Origin: an uncultured Pelagibacteraceae bacterium
GTDB taxonomy: Bacteria > Pseudomonadota > Alphaproteobacteria > Pelagibacterales > Pelagibacteraceae
Length of the DNA stretch: 64,000 nt
Assembly (NCBI GenBank): GCA_902610675.1
Contig: CACLWP010000004.1
Coordinates: 1-64,000 of the forward strand
Reading direction: 5' to 3'
In this document: piece after piece, positions 37,949-43,406 of the stretch
How the letters are laid out: each line of letters opens with the position of its first letter
Numbering within the stretch: the first letter of the stretch is position 1
Position numbers and translations under genes: made by a program
The notes under the pieces: model-generated
Told to the model about the DNA's origin: nothing
What the model saw: only the letters and a program-made list of their open reading frames with translations
Database searches by the model: none

Positions 37949-39210
37949 TTTAATTTTAATACTTCACCAGCTAAATACAAAGATCCCGTAATTATTAACA
38001 AATCGTTTTCTTCAAGTGATAAGGATTTAATTGCTTTTTCAATATTTTCTTCATATTTAACATTTAAAACATGTCTAAATTTTTCCTTTAATTTTTTACC
38101 ACTGATAGCGTTTTGTTGATTAGGGATATCAACAGTGGTCAGAGATGATATATCTTTAAAGTAGCTAATATATTTCTCATGATCTTTATTAGACATCATT
38201 CCTATAATAAAATGCTTATTACAATCTAAAGTTTGAAGAAATTCATTTAAAACCCTAGCACCATCTTCATTATGACTTCCATCTAACAATAGTTTGTTAT
38301 TTTTGATTAAATTTTTAATTTTTCCAGACTTTATTTCTTGTAATCTACCAACACTTTTTATTTTGGAAATTCCATTTTTTATATCATCATCTTTAATTTC
38401 TAAATTTAATTGTCTTATCGTTGCTATTGCAGTTGAAATATTTTCTAACTGAAACTGTCCTAGAATATTTGGTAATGGAAGTTTTAATCCACCAAATTTA
38501 TCCTCATAATAAAAAAAACCGTTCTCTCCATTGAAATAGCTATAGTCTTCATTAAAAAACAATTTATTAGACAAGTTTTTATTAATCGTTTTTTTGATAT
38601 TTTTAGTTGTTTTTACCGAGTTTTGTTTCGATACAATTATATTAGAATTTAAAAGAGTAGATGTTTTTTCAAATATAATTTTTTCTACTGTTTGTTGATT
38701 TCTTGGTAACCAATCGAGATGATCTTTACTTATAGAGCATACAACACTTGCTAAATTTTTTTTTAATATATTAGTTGCGTCAAACCTATGGAATAAACCT
38801 GCCTCAATAAGATTAATATTTTCAGGATATTGAGTAGCCTTATAAAAATAACAAGCAGTCAAAGCTTCAAAAAAAGTTAAAGGATTTTGATCGTTTATTT
38901 TTTTAACTTTCTCAAAAAGATCGATTAATTCATCATCTTTTATCGTATTATTATTAAAAACAAATCTTTCATTGATTTTTTGAATATGAGGACTTGTGTA
39001 AACATTACATTTTATTTTTGCTTCTTTTAAGATTGAAAAGATTGCGTTAATAGTAGATTGTTTGCCATTAGTTCCTACTACCGATATTGCTTTAATCTTA
39101 TCTTGAGGATTACCCAGTTTTTCACAAAGTGTTTTTATACGATCTAAACTTAAATCTATTTCTTTAGGATGCAACCTTTGTAAGTGACTGAGAGTTTTCT
39201 GAAGTTTCAT
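37945..39210 (-). CDS. folC: Dihydrofolate/folylpolyglutamate synthase
   Basis: VVGTNGKQSTINAIFSIL, TSPHIQKINERF, SISKDHLDWL, LLLDGSHNEDGARVL. Confidence 0.92.
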   Translation of the reverse strand: MKLQKTLSHLQRLHPKEIDLSLDRIKTLCEKLGNPQDKIKAISVVGTNGKQSTINAIFSILKEAKIKCNVYTSPHIQKINERFVFNNNTIKDDELIDLFEKVKKINDQNPLTFFEALTACYFYKATQYPENINLIEAGLFHRFDATNILKKNLASVVCSISKDHLDWLPRNQQTVEKIIFEKTSTLLNSNIIVSKQNSVKTTKNIKKTINKNLSNKLFFNEDYSYFNGENGFFYYEDKFGGLKLPLPNILGQFQLENISTAIATIRQLNLEIKDDDIKNGISKIKSVGRLQEIKSGKIKNLIKNNKLLLDGSHNEDGARVLNEFLQTLDCNKHFIIGMMSNKDHEKYISYFKDISSLTTVDIPNQQNAISGKKLKEKFRHVLNVKYEENIEKAIKSLSLEENDLLIITGSLYLAGEVLKLN

Positions 39211-40096
39211 TTTCTTCAGTGGTTATAGCATCGTTTTTATTTAATAAAATTGATAATAAAATGCCAAATTTTTCTTTAAGATCTTTTCTATCAATAATTA
39301 GGTCTACAAACCCAGTTTTCTTAACATAAGAACTTTTTTGAAAATTTTCTGGCAGACTTTCTTTAACAGTTCCTTCAATAACACGTTTGCCTGCAAAGGC
39401 TATTAAAGCATGGTCAGACTCTGCGATATGTAAATCACCCAACATTGCATATGAGGCTGTTATTCCTCCTGCAGTTGGATCTGTTAAACAGACTAAGTAA
39501 GGTAAACCATTTTTTTTGAGCTCATTTATAGCAAGTGTGGTCCTCGTCATCTGGGACAAGGATATTAAACTTTCCATCATTCTCATACCACCACCTGAGC
39601 TAAAGCAAATAAATGGTGTTTTATTTTCTATTGCGTGTTGAATACCATATAAAAAAGCTTCACCTTCAGCGGCTGCTATTGAAGCTCCTAAAAATTCAAA
39701 ATCTGATGCAACTGCAGTAATCTTAATATTATTTATCGACCCAGATACCACCATCATACCACAATCTAAACCTGTTTTTTTTCTAGCACTTTTCAATCTA
39801 TCTTTATAAGATTTTGAGTCTGTCCAGCTTAAAGGATCATCTTTTGGGATAGGTGTTTTAAAAACTTCATAATTATTTATTCCAAAAAGAATATCAAATC
39901 TTTGTTTTGGCTTAATCTTATGATGTTTATTACAATCTGGACATACCCAAAGATTTTGCTCTAGACTTTTTTTTAAAATTGGACCCTTGCAACAGGATGT
40001 CCAATCACTATTAGCAATGTCCTCTTTTGATGCTCTTTTATGAATAGCAGTTTTAATTTTTTCACCAGCTTTAATTATTTTTGTTATCCAATTCAT
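39164..40096 (-). CDS. accD: Acetyl-CoA carboxylase carboxyltransferase subunit beta
   Basis: NWVCPDC-type LWVCPDCNKHHKIKPKQRFDILF, TDPTAGGITASYAMLGDLHIAE, FAGKRVIEGTVKESLPENFQ. Confidence 0.9.
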   Translation of the reverse strand: MNWITKIIKAGEKIKTAIHKRASKEDIANSDWTSCCKGPILKKSLEQNLWVCPDCNKHHKIKPKQRFDILFGINNYEVFKTPIPKDDPLSWTDSKSYKDRLKSARKKTGLDCGMMVVSGSINNIKITAVASDFEFLGASIAAAEGEAFLYGIQHAIENKTPFICFSSGGGMRMMESLISLSQMTRTTLAINELKKNGLPYLVCLTDPTAGGITASYAMLGDLHIAESDHALIAFAGKRVIEGTVKESLPENFQKSSYVKKTGFVDLIIDRKDLKEKFGILLSILLNKNDAITTEENETSENSQSLTKVAS

Positions 40097-40893
40097 TTTA
40101 TTTTATTTTTTAATTTCCTTACGACATTATAAACATTTGTGACCGGATTTTGTCTTTTTTTAATTGAATTTGAAATTTCTTTGCAAATAGCACTTCCCAC
40201 GACTAAACCATCAGCTTTTTTTAGAGATTTTATGGTTTTTTCAGTTATGCCAAAACCAATTACAACATTTTTTTTTGGACTGATTCTTTTAATTCTGTCG
40301 TAATTTAAAAGTATTTCTTTGGATGAAACTTTTAGTTTGCCACCAGTGGTAGACAACATTGATATGAAATAGTTCATTGGATGAGAGTCTTTAATTATTT
40401 TTTTTAGTCTTTCTTTAGTGGTAGTAGGTGACAAAAGTTGAATGAAATAAATTGATTTTTTTTTACATTTTTTTGCAAAATTCTTATTTTCTGGCCACGG
40501 CAAATCTACAATTATCAGTCCATTAACACCACAAGTTTTGCATTTAGTTAAAAATTGATTTTCTCCGTATTGAAATATCATATTATAGTAGCCCATCAAT
40601 ATAATTGGTTTTGCTTTATCTGATCTTCTAAAATCTTTGACGATCTTAAAAATATCATTAATTTTGATCCCATGTTTGATTGCTCTGTATGCACTTGTTT
40701 GTATTTGGCTGCCATCTGCAACGGGAGTGTTGTGTGGTACACCTAATTCTAAAATGTCAGCATTTTTAGATATAGATTTTAATATGGCTAAAGATTGCTT
40801 TTTAGTGCTGTCACCACCAACTGTATAAGTTAATAAAGCTGGTCTATTTTCTTGTTTTGCTTTCTTAAAGGCATCACTAATTGGATTTGACAT
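40093..40893 (-). CDS. trpA: Tryptophan synthase alpha subunit
   Basis: ILELGVPHNTPVADGSQIQ, ILMGYYNMIFQYG, GLIIVDLPWPE, VIGFGI, VVGSAICKEI. Confidence 0.9.
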   Translation of the reverse strand: MSNPISDAFKKAKQENRPALLTYTVGGDSTKKQSLAILKSISKNADILELGVPHNTPVADGSQIQTSAYRAIKHGIKINDIFKIVKDFRRSDKAKPIILMGYYNMIFQYGENQFLTKCKTCGVNGLIIVDLPWPENKNFAKKCKKKSIYFIQLLSPTTTKERLKKIIKDSHPMNYFISMLSTTGGKLKVSSKEILLNYDRIKRISPKKNVVIGFGITEKTIKSLKKADGLVVGSAICKEISNSIKKRQNPVTNVYNVVRKLKNKIK

Positions 40894-42121
40894 ATTTTTT
40901 TCCTAATCTTTTTTCTAAAATACCTCGATCTTTGTAAGCATCTCCACAACTATTGACAATTACAATTGTGTCTTTACTAAACTTCTTAGACTCTTTTATT
41001 GCAACAGAGAAGGCATGACTTGGTTCGAGAGAAGGTCTTAATTTTTCAAATTTTGTCACTAGTTTATAAGCTTTCAGCGCTTCCTCATCACTTACAGCGG
41101 TATATCTTGCTCTTTTTGTATCTTTTAAAAAACAATGGAGTGGAGAAATTCCCGGATAATCAAGTCCTGCTGAAATTGACTCGGTTTCCTCTATTTGTCC
41201 ATCTGAGTTTTGATTTACATATTGAGCTGCGCCATGAAGAATTCCAATTTTAGAACCATAAGTCAAAGGTGCTGCATGTTTTTTACTTTTTGAAGGCCCA
41301 CCAGCCTCTACACCTATAAACTCACATTGCTTTTTACTGTAATCCATAAATTCATTCCAAAAACCATAACTTGAACTTCCACCACCTACACAGTTGTACA
41401 GTTTTAGTTTTTTTGGAACAGAACCAAACTCATTTATTAGTTGGACTTTTAGCTCTCGTGAAATTTGACTTGTGCTCCATCCACAGATACGTACGAAAAC
41501 TGCTGGTCCTACCGTGCTTCCAACACACATGGCTGTAGTGTCACAATTAGCAACCCAAAATCGCATACATTCTGAGACAGCATCAACAAGAGTTTGACTC
41601 CCTGAATATACTGGTATGACTTCTGCTCCATTTTTTTTCATGGCCTTCACATTTGGTTGTTGTCTCTCAATATCTTTCGAGCCCATAAAAATTTTACATT
41701 TAAGACCAAATTTTTTAGCTGCCATACTTAACATTTTACCAGCGTACCCTGCACCGGTATCACCAATGATGGTTTTTTTCCCAGAACGTTTTGCAAGCAA
41801 ACAATGAACTGTTGCGTTATAAATTTTATGTGCCCCTCCGTTGGCATCCGATACAACCTTTGACCAAATTTGAGCTCCACCCACATGTTTTGTTAGGTTT
41901 TCTAATTTTATAAAACGAGTAGGGGAACCAATCCAGTTTTTAAAATATCTATCTCTTTCAGCAATAAATCTTTTATCTTTTTTGAGTTTGTTAAATAGAA
42001 TTTCTAAATCTTCAATAGGTTTTTTTAATGTTTCAGGTACAAAATTTCCACCGAATTTACCTCCCCAAAATCCAAGTTTATTTCCTTGATCGATTAATGG
42101 GATACCTTTTTTAATTTTCAT
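40877..42121 (-). CDS. trpB: Tryptophan synthase beta-like PLP protein, strongly divergent
   Basis: GGAHKIYN (PLP Lys), GDTGAGYAGK, MGSKDIERQQPNVKAMKKNGAEVIPVYSG, GGGSSSYGFW, DGQIEETESISAGLDYPGISPLH; canonical trp locus. Confidence 0.85.
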   Translation of the reverse strand: MKIKKGIPLIDQGNKLGFWGGKFGGNFVPETLKKPIEDLEILFNKLKKDKRFIAERDRYFKNWIGSPTRFIKLENLTKHVGGAQIWSKVVSDANGGAHKIYNATVHCLLAKRSGKKTIIGDTGAGYAGKMLSMAAKKFGLKCKIFMGSKDIERQQPNVKAMKKNGAEVIPVYSGSQTLVDAVSECMRFWVANCDTTAMCVGSTVGPAVFVRICGWSTSQISRELKVQLINEFGSVPKKLKLYNCVGGGSSSYGFWNEFMDYSKKQCEFIGVEAGGPSKSKKHAAPLTYGSKIGILHGAAQYVNQNSDGQIEETESISAGLDYPGISPLHCFLKDTKRARYTAVSDEEALKAYKLVTKFEKLRPSLEPSHAFSVAIKESKKFSKDTIVIVNSCGDAYKDRGILEKRLGKKYVKSN

Positions 42122-42735
42122 ATTTTCGCAAATAAATTTAATAATTTATCAATTTTATTAATATCTTTTTTTCCATTCTTATCCTCTAGGGCACCGCTAA
42201 GATCAACAATAAAATCTTTATTCTTAAAGTTAGGTATATCATCTATTTGTATGTTTCCAGCAATCATTTTATTTAATTCATTCGGCACCTCATTAAGTAG
42301 ATTGTGATTAAAGCTTTCAGATTTATGGTAACCTTTTGAGTCAAATAGAATTATATCTGAGATTTCATAATAATCTTTATATTTTAATACATCTTTTTTA
42401 TTAGAGACAGTTAATGCTGAGATTATCTTTTTTTTGTATTTCAATTTTATTTCTAATGTTCTCTGGGGCTCAACGTCATAGAGTTGATAATAATCAAAAT
42501 TTAAATCTTTAATTTTTTCTAAAATTTCATTATTTGGCTTAACAAGCACAGAAACAAAGCTAAGTTGTTTTTTATCAACATTAATTAAATTTTTTAATTT
42601 TTTATATTCAACAAATCTTCTACTTTTTTCATAATTGGTTATAAACCCTATGAATTTTGACGGGTAGGGATGATTTAAAATATAGTTTAAAGTTTTAGGA
42701 TCTGAGACCCCGCAAATTTTTAAGCCTTTGATCAT
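42118..42735 (-). CDS. trpF: Phosphoribosylanthranilate isomerase-like protein, divergent
   Basis: GLKICGVSDPKTLNYI, KFIGFITNYEKSRRFV, IILFDSKG; located between pyrF and trpB. Confidence 0.75.
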   Translation of the reverse strand: MIKGLKICGVSDPKTLNYILNHPYPSKFIGFITNYEKSRRFVEYKKLKNLINVDKKQLSFVSVLVKPNNEILEKIKDLNFDYYQLYDVEPQRTLEIKLKYKKKIISALTVSNKKDVLKYKDYYEISDIILFDSKGYHKSESFNHNLLNEVPNELNKMIAGNIQIDDIPNFKNKDFIVDLSGALEDKNGKKDINKIDKLLNLFAKI

Positions 42736-43406
42736 TTGTTTATATGATCGATTAATTTTTGAATATTCTTTTTTATATCGCCCTTAGTTATTGGCCTACC
42801 GATTACCAACCAGTCACTCCCATTCTTGTAGGCTTGATTGGGAGTTAAAATCCTTTTTTGATCGTTTTTGTCTTTATTTATTCTAATACCTGGAGTAATT
42901 ATTTCTTTTTTGAATACTTTTTTAACTATCTTTATTTCCTGAGCACTACAAACTATAGCATCTAATTTTGCTTTGGATGCAAGCTTAGCTTGTTGCAAAA
43001 CTAATTTTTTTACATTGTTCTTGTGACCTATTTGTTTAAGTGCTTTATTATCTAATGACGTTAAAACAGTTACCCCAACTAATTTAGTTTTTCCTGATAC
43101 TTTTTTGGCAGAAATTAGAGCTTTCAAGCCTGAGCTAATATGTATCGTCAAGTAATCTATTTTTAGGTCTTTAACTGCTTTTATTGTTGAAACGCAGGTA
43201 TTAGGAATATCATTTAGTTTCAAATCTGCAAAAATAATCTGATTTTTTAATTTAGATAAAAAATTTCTACCATTTTTCGAGTTTAAAAATTCTAAACCAA
43301 ATTTATAACCTAATTTCAATTTAGGATTTCTAGATTTTGTAATTATTTCTCTTATTTTTTTGATATTTGTACTGTCACAGGCAACAAATATTTTATTCAT
43401 CTTCAT
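42732..43406 (-). CDS. pyrF: Orotidine 5'-phosphate decarboxylase
   Basis: IFADLKLNDIPNT, VGVTVLTSLD, ITPGIRI, DWLVIGRPIT. Confidence 0.93.
   Translation of the reverse strand: MKMNKIFVACDSTNIKKIREIITKSRNPKLKLGYKFGLEFLNSKNGRNFLSKLKNQIIFADLKLNDIPNTCVSTIKAVKDLKIDYLTIHISSGLKALISAKKVSGKTKLVGVTVLTSLDNKALKQIGHKNNVKKLVLQQAKLASKAKLDAIVCSAQEIKIVKKVFKKEIITPGIRINKDKNDQKRILTPNQAYKNGSDWLVIGRPITKGDIKKNIQKLIDHINK

What the first reader, a model, noticed from the sequence alone, without database searches (positions are those of the whole stretch)
40877..42121. TrpB in the canonical trp locus with altered catalytic and PLP-binding motifs
The gene sits in the standard pyrF-trpF-trpB-trpA-accD order, but aligned by eye (Salmonella TrpB numbering) many near-invariant positions are changed. 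KREDLLHGGAHK is KVVSDANGGAHK (PLP Lys87 kept). AETGAGQHG is GDTGAGYAGK, so Glu109 is Asp and Gln114/His115, part of the substrate-carboxylate loop, are Tyr/Ala. GPHPYPTIVREFQ is GPAVFVRICGWST. The phosphate loop GGGSNA is GGGSSS. NLSGRGDKD is NSCGDAYKD, so Ser377 (PLP N1 partner) is Cys. Fold-defining stretches (DIERQxPN, GAEVIPVxSG, DGQIEExxSISAGLDxP, LExSHA) are kept. This pattern suggests a changed beta-reaction, or a fast-evolving enzyme with altered chemistry, rather than simple decay.
Basis: partly seen in the sequence, partly recalled or inferred. Interest (0 to 1): 0.78.

Follow-up and report, generated by a model that had tools for sequence, protein, structure and literature searches.

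The report
Remodelled tryptophan synthase of ocean SAR11
The abundant ocean bacterium SAR11 makes its tryptophan with a version of the standard enzyme whose catalytic pocket and partner-contact residues, nearly unchanging in other bacteria, have been rebuilt and then kept under strong selection, so it is a working natural variant and not a broken gene.

Summary
The window is SAR11 (Pelagibacteraceae), and this is the genome's only trpB, 17 nt overlapping trpA. E109D, Q114Y, H115A, K167V, N236S, H195A and R379D are true ungapped substitutions. D109 and V167 occur in every SAR11-type sequence readable there (125/125 in the first set). One quoted change is not special: Cys at 377 is normal in Alphaproteobacteria (28/37).

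It is not decay: omega is 0.02-0.09, it is the sole trpB in near-closed genomes, and TrpA keeps Glu49 and Asp60. A different reaction is not supported. Best reading: a bona fide tryptophan synthase beta subunit using L-serine plus indole, with a rebuilt indole pocket and alpha-beta contact. Residues beta167 and alpha56 match in all 208 pairs (K with D/E, V/L with T/A/C), though the tree needs only two joint changes.

The type is one clade, confined to Pelagibacterales in our samples, scoring about 375-406 bits on the TrpB model against 635-665 for the best of the class. Some SAR11 carry other divergent trpBA pairs at the same locus. The cluster was noticed in 2008 (PMC2395257) without residue analysis. 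Kinetics are untested.

Side finding: three relatives carry a conserved +1 frameshift inside the catalytic loop.

The parts
40877..42121 (-). trpB, type II (SAR11-type) tryptophan synthase beta subunit, 414 aa
   Evidence: ORF; best TrpB family match TIGR00263 378 bits; AlphaFold2 model pLDDT 92.4, TM 0.90/0.96 and rmsd 1.4-1.7 A to Pyrococcus furiosus TrpB
40093..40893 (-). trpA, alpha subunit, 266 aa, overlaps the trpB end by 17 nt
   Evidence: TIGR00262 210.9 bits over cut-off 102; E49 and D60 kept
41825..41827 (-). codon of Lys99 = Lys87 (PLP Schiff base), kept
41759..41761 (-). codon of Asp121 = position 109 (canonical Glu that contacts indole N1)
   Evidence: role of Glu109 from PMC9512447
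41741..41746 (-). codons of Tyr126 and Ala127 = positions 114 and 115 (canonical Gln, His)
   Evidence: roles from PMC9512447
41585..41587 (-). codon of Val179 = position 167 (canonical Lys)
41372..41374 (-). codon of Ser250 = position 236 (canonical Asn of the GGGSNA phosphate loop)
41663..41665 (-). codon of Arg153 = Arg141, kept (closed-state salt bridge with Asp305)
   Evidence: PMC9512447
41159..41161 (-). codon of Asp321 = Asp305, kept
40946..40948 (-). codon of Cys392 = position 377; Cys here is normal for Alphaproteobacteria
   Evidence: 28 of 37 canonical have Cys
40726..40728 (-). trpA codon of Thr56 (canonical alpha Asp56), co-varies with beta167
   Evidence: K167 with D/E56 55/55; V/L167 with T/A/C56 153/153
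42118..42735 (-). trpF
   Evidence: PRAI family match, only one in the genome
42732..43406 (-). pyrF
39164..40096 (-). accD

Best explanation
This is the only and working tryptophan synthase beta subunit of a SAR11 cell. It forms a complex with the TrpA encoded next to it and joins L-serine to the indole that TrpA makes. PLP sits on Lys87 as usual. Asp109 most likely takes over the role of Glu109, holding the indole N1. Loss of the His115 wall and the new Tyr/Met114 would let the indole sit to suit the shorter acid. The usual closed-state bridge Arg141-Asp305 is kept, but the Gln114-Arg148 contact and the charged alphaAsp56-betaLys167 pair are gone in both subunits, so communication between the two sites is probably re-wired. 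Shown: substitutions, their conservation, sole-copy status, intact TrpA catalytic residues, alpha56/beta167 matching, selection. Inferred: the reaction, the role of Asp109, altered allostery.
For: Only trpB in own genome and in near-closed relatives. The closed genome of 1,308,759 bp, by size Ca. Pelagibacter ubique HTCC1062 (identification from memory), carries this type (L180); Kagan et al. argued in 2008 that P. ubique's single trpB must be functional (PMC2395257). TrpD in 14 of 15 mostly near-closed genomes, TrpC in 16 of 18 genomes at 90% or more, one TrpA each. TrpA Glu49 124/124, Asp60 123/124 with one Glu. dN/dS 0.02-0.09. beta167/alpha56 matching in 208 of 208 pairs. Fold as TrpB. SerC absent in 7 of 7 near-closed genomes of the same genus, so O-phosphoserine is not the likely donor there. 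One clade beside canonical TrpB1, far from TrpB2.
Against: No assay exists. Glu109 is described as essential for tryptophan formation in other TrpBs (PMC12727527), and engineered changes there alter the nucleophile, so a side activity cannot be excluded. The window's own assembly (84% complete) lacks hits for trpC and trpD. The alpha56/beta167 matching rests on two joint changes in the tree, so it is consistent but not statistically tested.
Confidence: 0.8

Rival explanations
1. The enzyme has a new main reaction: it adds something other than indole to the serine-derived aminoacrylate, with tryptophan made elsewhere or taken up.
For: Glu109 (Glu105 in Thermotoga) governs the nucleophile; engineered Gly/Ala/Ser variants make tyrosine from phenol (cited in PMC12727527 and PMC12909874). 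Pocket residues 109, 114, 115 and 195-197 are all changed.
Against: Asp keeps the acid; trpB stays overlapped with or next to an intact trpA; trpD and trpC kept; no other trpB in the near-closed genomes.
Confidence: 0.06
2. It is a pseudoenzyme that only activates TrpA, like the plant TSB-like proteins.
For: The same catalytic Glu is altered in the plant pseudoenzymes (PMC12727527).
Against: There Glu became Ala and Asp305 became Glu beside a catalytic TSB; here Glu became Asp, Asp305 is kept, Lys87 is kept and there is no catalytic paralogue.
Confidence: 0.03
3. It is a fast-evolving but mechanistically ordinary TrpB: the substitutions are nearly neutral by-products of SAR11's AT-rich, recombining genome, and rate, specificity and allostery are as in canonical TrpB. 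(This is a sub-case of the best explanation: same reaction, no altered mechanism.)
For: Neighbour genes also score low on their family models (AccD 267 of 317, PyrF 185 of 193); position 115 varies among A, N, F and Q inside the clade.
Against: A small, 1.41 Mb genome of the class (G085) keeps a canonical trpB of 634 bits. G037 and G039 of one family share TrpC/TrpD at 51-52% but TrpB at 40%, while G037 and the other family share TrpC/TrpD at about 40-46% but TrpB at 69-71%. D109 changed once and is fixed. Together: one large shift, then strong constraint.
Confidence: 0.3
4. It uses O-phosphoserine instead of serine, like TrpB2 enzymes.
For: Changed carboxylate/phosphate loops; TrpB2 precedent (Busch 2014, cited in PMC12727527).
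Against: No SerC in 7 of 7 near-closed genomes of the same genus, though present in the other type II genera tested; sequence is TrpB1-like.
Confidence: 0.03

Closest known systems
Canonical TrpB1 (E. coli, Salmonella, Pyrococcus furiosus; NCBIfam TIGR00263)
   Same: Fold (TM 0.90/0.96), Lys87, His86, Arg141, Asp305, Glu350, Lys382, GGGS loop, operon with trpA
   Different: E109D, Q114Y, H115A, K167V, N236S, H195A, P196V, R379D; 39-44% identity; below the TIGR00263 cut-off
SAR11/Sargasso trpB_1 cluster of Kagan et al. 2008 (PMC2395257)
   Same: Very probably the same group: single-copy P. [quoted passage not shown]
   Different: That paper reports tree position and gene order in the sections read; no active-site, alpha-beta matching or replacement analysis there
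TrpB2 / TrpB-like (TIGR01415)
   Same: Same superfamily; also present as a separate gene in some SAR11 (L159, L160)
   Different: Only 95 bits against a cut-off of 519; TrpB2 has Glu109 and Trp115 in our alignment
Plant TSB-like pseudoenzyme (PMC12727527)
   Same: Change at the catalytic Glu
   Different: Ala not Asp, Asp305 to Glu, a paralogue beside an active TSB
Laboratory E105 variants of Thermotoga TrpB (tyrosine synthases)
   Same: Same position changed
   Different: Gly/Ala/Ser remove the acid; here Asp keeps it

Membership tests
TrpB1 (canonical tryptophan synthase beta) | Curated TIGR00263 score | tested here: not met
   378.2 against 392.45; 84 of 398 Pelagibacterales genomes have a match over it
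TrpB1 (canonical tryptophan synthase beta) | PLP lysine and GGGS phosphate loop | tested here: met
   K87 125/125; GGGS kept, Asn236 replaced by Ser
TrpB1 (canonical tryptophan synthase beta) | Catalytic Glu109 with Gln114/His115 | tested here: not met
   Asp, Tyr, Ala
TrpB1 (canonical tryptophan synthase beta) | Arg141-Asp305 closed-state pair | tested here: met
   125/125
TrpB1 (canonical tryptophan synthase beta) | Descent: branches with TrpB1, not TrpB2 | tested here: met
   one starred clade in an unresolved fork with canonical TrpB, stem 1.31; long-branch warnings apply
TrpB1 (canonical tryptophan synthase beta) | Linked to and complexed with TrpA | tested here: inconclusive
   linkage in 146/148 loci and alpha56/beta167 matching; complex not measured
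TrpB1 (canonical tryptophan synthase beta) | Makes tryptophan from serine and indole | not testable with these tools
   needs an assay
TrpB2 | TIGR01415/PRK12391 score | tested here: not met
   95.5 of 518.9 and 89.3 of 366
TrpB2 | O-phosphoserine donor | tested here: inconclusive
   SerC absent in 7/7 same-genus near-closed genomes; donor itself not tested
TSB-like pseudoenzyme | Separate catalytic TrpB in the same genome | tested here: not met
   none in near-closed genomes
TSB-like pseudoenzyme | Glu to Ala and Asp305 to Glu | tested here: not met
   Asp and Asp (definition)

The most novel reading that the evidence does not exclude
The SAR11 enzyme is a natural TrpB that runs the beta-reaction with an aspartate and an open indole wall, and with an uncharged alpha-beta relay replacing the classical salt bridge: a second working solution for catalysis and subunit communication in an enzyme thought to allow only one. 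In one subgroup, its translation may also pass through a conserved +1 frameshift inside the catalytic loop.
Probability: 0.45. Interest if true: 0.7.

Novelty: new variant of a known kind. Interest (0 to 1): 0.55.

Why it matters
Tryptophan synthase is a textbook case of catalysis, channelling and allostery, and a platform for enzyme engineering; positions 109, 114, 115, 167 and alpha56 are treated as near-fixed. One of the most abundant bacterial groups in the sea appears to live with all of them changed. That gives a natural experiment on which residues are needed, a ready scaffold with a different nucleophile pocket, and a test case for trpB and trpA moving as a matched pair. It also warns that the curated TrpB model misses most SAR11 trpBs.

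Tried and rejected
Pseudogene or decay: rejected by omega and conservation. Misalignment: rejected, ungapped in HMMER and MAFFT. Second canonical trpB: none. Ser377Cys as a signal: rejected. Phage origin: listed phage matches at most 43% identical and no viral-contig relative. Type outside SAR11: best non-SAR11 score 399.5 bits against 817-832 in a sample of 398 Pseudomonadota. AccD as a clock: abandoned, because AccD, PyrF and TrpF are themselves a mosaic in this locus; replaced by the unlinked TrpC and TrpD. Significance test of alpha56/beta167 matching: only one or two independent pairs, cannot reach significance. RNA structure at the frameshift site: none.

Full report
What is there. The window lies in a SAR11 genome: the nearest named relatives are uncultured Pelagibacteraceae single cells with TrpB 91-94% identical. 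The gene order is pyrF-trpF-trpB-trpA-accD on the minus strand; trpB (40877-42121) overlaps trpA (40093-40893) by 17 nt. TrpB scores 378 bits on TIGR00263, under the cut-off of 392. In a class-wide sample the listed best trpBs give about 635-665 bits (most others E 1e-175 to 1e-200, a few much weaker), while the Pelagibacterales mostly give about 374-406. Only 84 of 398 Pelagibacterales genomes have a match over the cut-off.

The residues. In Salmonella/E. coli numbering, 125 SAR11-type sequences from the first set against 37 canonical Alphaproteobacterial ones: E109D, Q114Y (one M), H115A, K167V, T190S, N236S, R379D and changes of H195-P196-Y197 are fixed or nearly so; H86, K87, R141, D305, E350 and K382 are kept. 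Deeper members show D109 and V167 always where the residue could be read, 114 as Y or M, and 115 as A, N, F or Q. Cys377 is no signal: 28 of 37 canonical sequences have it. Of 146 columns fixed in canonical TrpB, 48 are changed.

What these positions do. From the literature: Glu109 hydrogen-bonds indole N1 and stabilises C-C bond formation; His115 and Phe306 span the indole sub-site; Gln114 bonds Asn145 and Arg148 in the closed state; Arg141-Asp305 closes the subunit (PMC9512447). So the changes sit on the indole site and the closing loop, while the main closing salt bridge is kept. Arg148 is lost together with Gln114 in nearly all members. That alphaAsp56-betaLys167 is an intersubunit salt bridge is from my own knowledge; a simulation paper puts both residues at the indole channel (PMC8187860).

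Partner matching. Over all loci with both genes, K167 goes with alpha D or E at 56 (55 of 55) and V or L167 goes with T, A or C (153 of 153). The tree needs only two changes for each, and both coincide. This fits co-adaptation but cannot be tested for significance.

Function is kept. dN/dS between the window and six relatives is 0.02-0.09 for trpB and 0.09-0.18 for trpA. The near-closed genomes tested have one trpB. TrpD is found in 14 of 15 mostly near-closed genomes, one TrpA in each genome tested, TrpC in 16 of 18 genomes at 90% completeness or more. TrpA keeps Glu49 in 124/124 and Asp60 in 123/124. A closed genome of 1,308,759 bp carries this type (L180); I recognise that size as HTCC1062 from memory, and recall, also from memory, that HTCC1062 grows on a defined medium without tryptophan. 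Kagan et al. drew the same conclusion from its single trpB (PMC2395257). SerC is missing in 7 of 7 near-closed genomes of the window's genus, so O-phosphoserine is an unlikely donor.

Origin. Type II is one starred clade on a long stem (1.31 changes per site) in an unresolved fork with canonical TrpB1 (the program warns of long branches). Outside the order, the best of 396 Pseudomonadota genomes scores 399.5 bits against 817-832 inside. Unlinked genes give a yardstick: G037 and G039, one family, share TrpC/TrpD at 51-52% but TrpB at only 40% (type II against canonical); G037 and the other family share TrpC/TrpD at about 40-46% but TrpB at 69-71%. One large change then strong constraint is the simplest reading; spread of type II between families is not excluded.

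Exchange of trpBA. At the same locus other SAR11 carry three further divergent pairs (types III, IV, V) and one canonical pair. G012 and G235, same genus, share TrpD at 77% and TrpC at 75% but TrpB at 36% and TrpA at 29%. The two genes change together, which again points to a matched pair. The neighbours pyrF, trpF and accD are mosaic too.

Structure. AlphaFold2 gives pLDDT 92.4 and matches P. furiosus TrpB with TM 0.90/0.96 and rmsd 1.4-1.7 A.

Verdict. A bona fide, remodelled tryptophan synthase beta subunit. By descent it belongs with TrpB1; by its catalytic signature it fails the canonical test, so I file it as a new variant, not as a canonical member. That it is a distinct cluster was published in 2008; the residue-level remodelling, alpha-beta matching and pair replacement were not found in the literature searches made here. 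Altered kinetics or allostery remain predictions.

Side finding. Three genomes of a related genus (G605, G628, G689) have trpB in two frames joined by one extra base, GAT ACC (A) GGC, inside GDTGAG. Pairwise dS exceeds 1, dN is 0.04-0.10 on both sides, both frames are otherwise open, and the best-conserved windows of the gene lie at the site. It holds the longest run of identical codons (6, next 4), yet the three do not group together in the weakly resolved TrpB tree. Programmed +1 frameshifting (a GGGGG run lies just upstream, as in prfB, from memory) or a recurring allele: unresolved.

Noticed in passing
L255:5666-5686 (G605), same site in L256 and L257 (G628, G689): Conserved +1 frameshift inside the catalytic loop of type II trpB in three genomes: ATT GTG GGG GAT ACC (A) GGC; purifying selection on both sides, most conserved stretch of the gene, absent in 24 other members of the genus examined.
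   Followed up: partly
L148, L194, L196, L198, L199 (type III); L150, L179 (type IV); L146, L147, L181, L184 (type V); L149 canonical: Other SAR11 genomes carry four further trpBA pairs at the same locus; type III has M114, N/H115, L167, S382 with alphaT56, another unusual TrpB.
   Followed up: partly
window 39164-43406 and homologous loci: pyrF, trpF and accD around trpBA are a mosaic of deeply different alleles among SAR11 relatives (AccD 33-88%, PyrF 37-76%, TrpF 27-80% identity to the window).
   Followed up: partly
L159, L160; also G489:C14:15117-16151, G568:C1:93183-94217, G671:C10:36022-37059: Some SAR11 genomes also hold, and a few seem to hold only, a TrpB2-like gene.
   Followed up: no
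L258 (G612), L259 (G533): Type II trpB split by single frameshifts at other places (near residues 224 and 266 of the query), one genome each; may be sequence errors.
   Followed up: no
window 40093-40893: TrpA also has unusual interface and loop residues: alphaF54H, D56T, G181S, nearly fixed in type II partners except that 56 is T, A or C.
   Followed up: partly
G382, G394, G451, G452, G455, G479: No trpB match in six SAR11 genomes at 90% or more completeness, though trpD is present in G382 and G394; may be assembly gaps.
   Followed up: no
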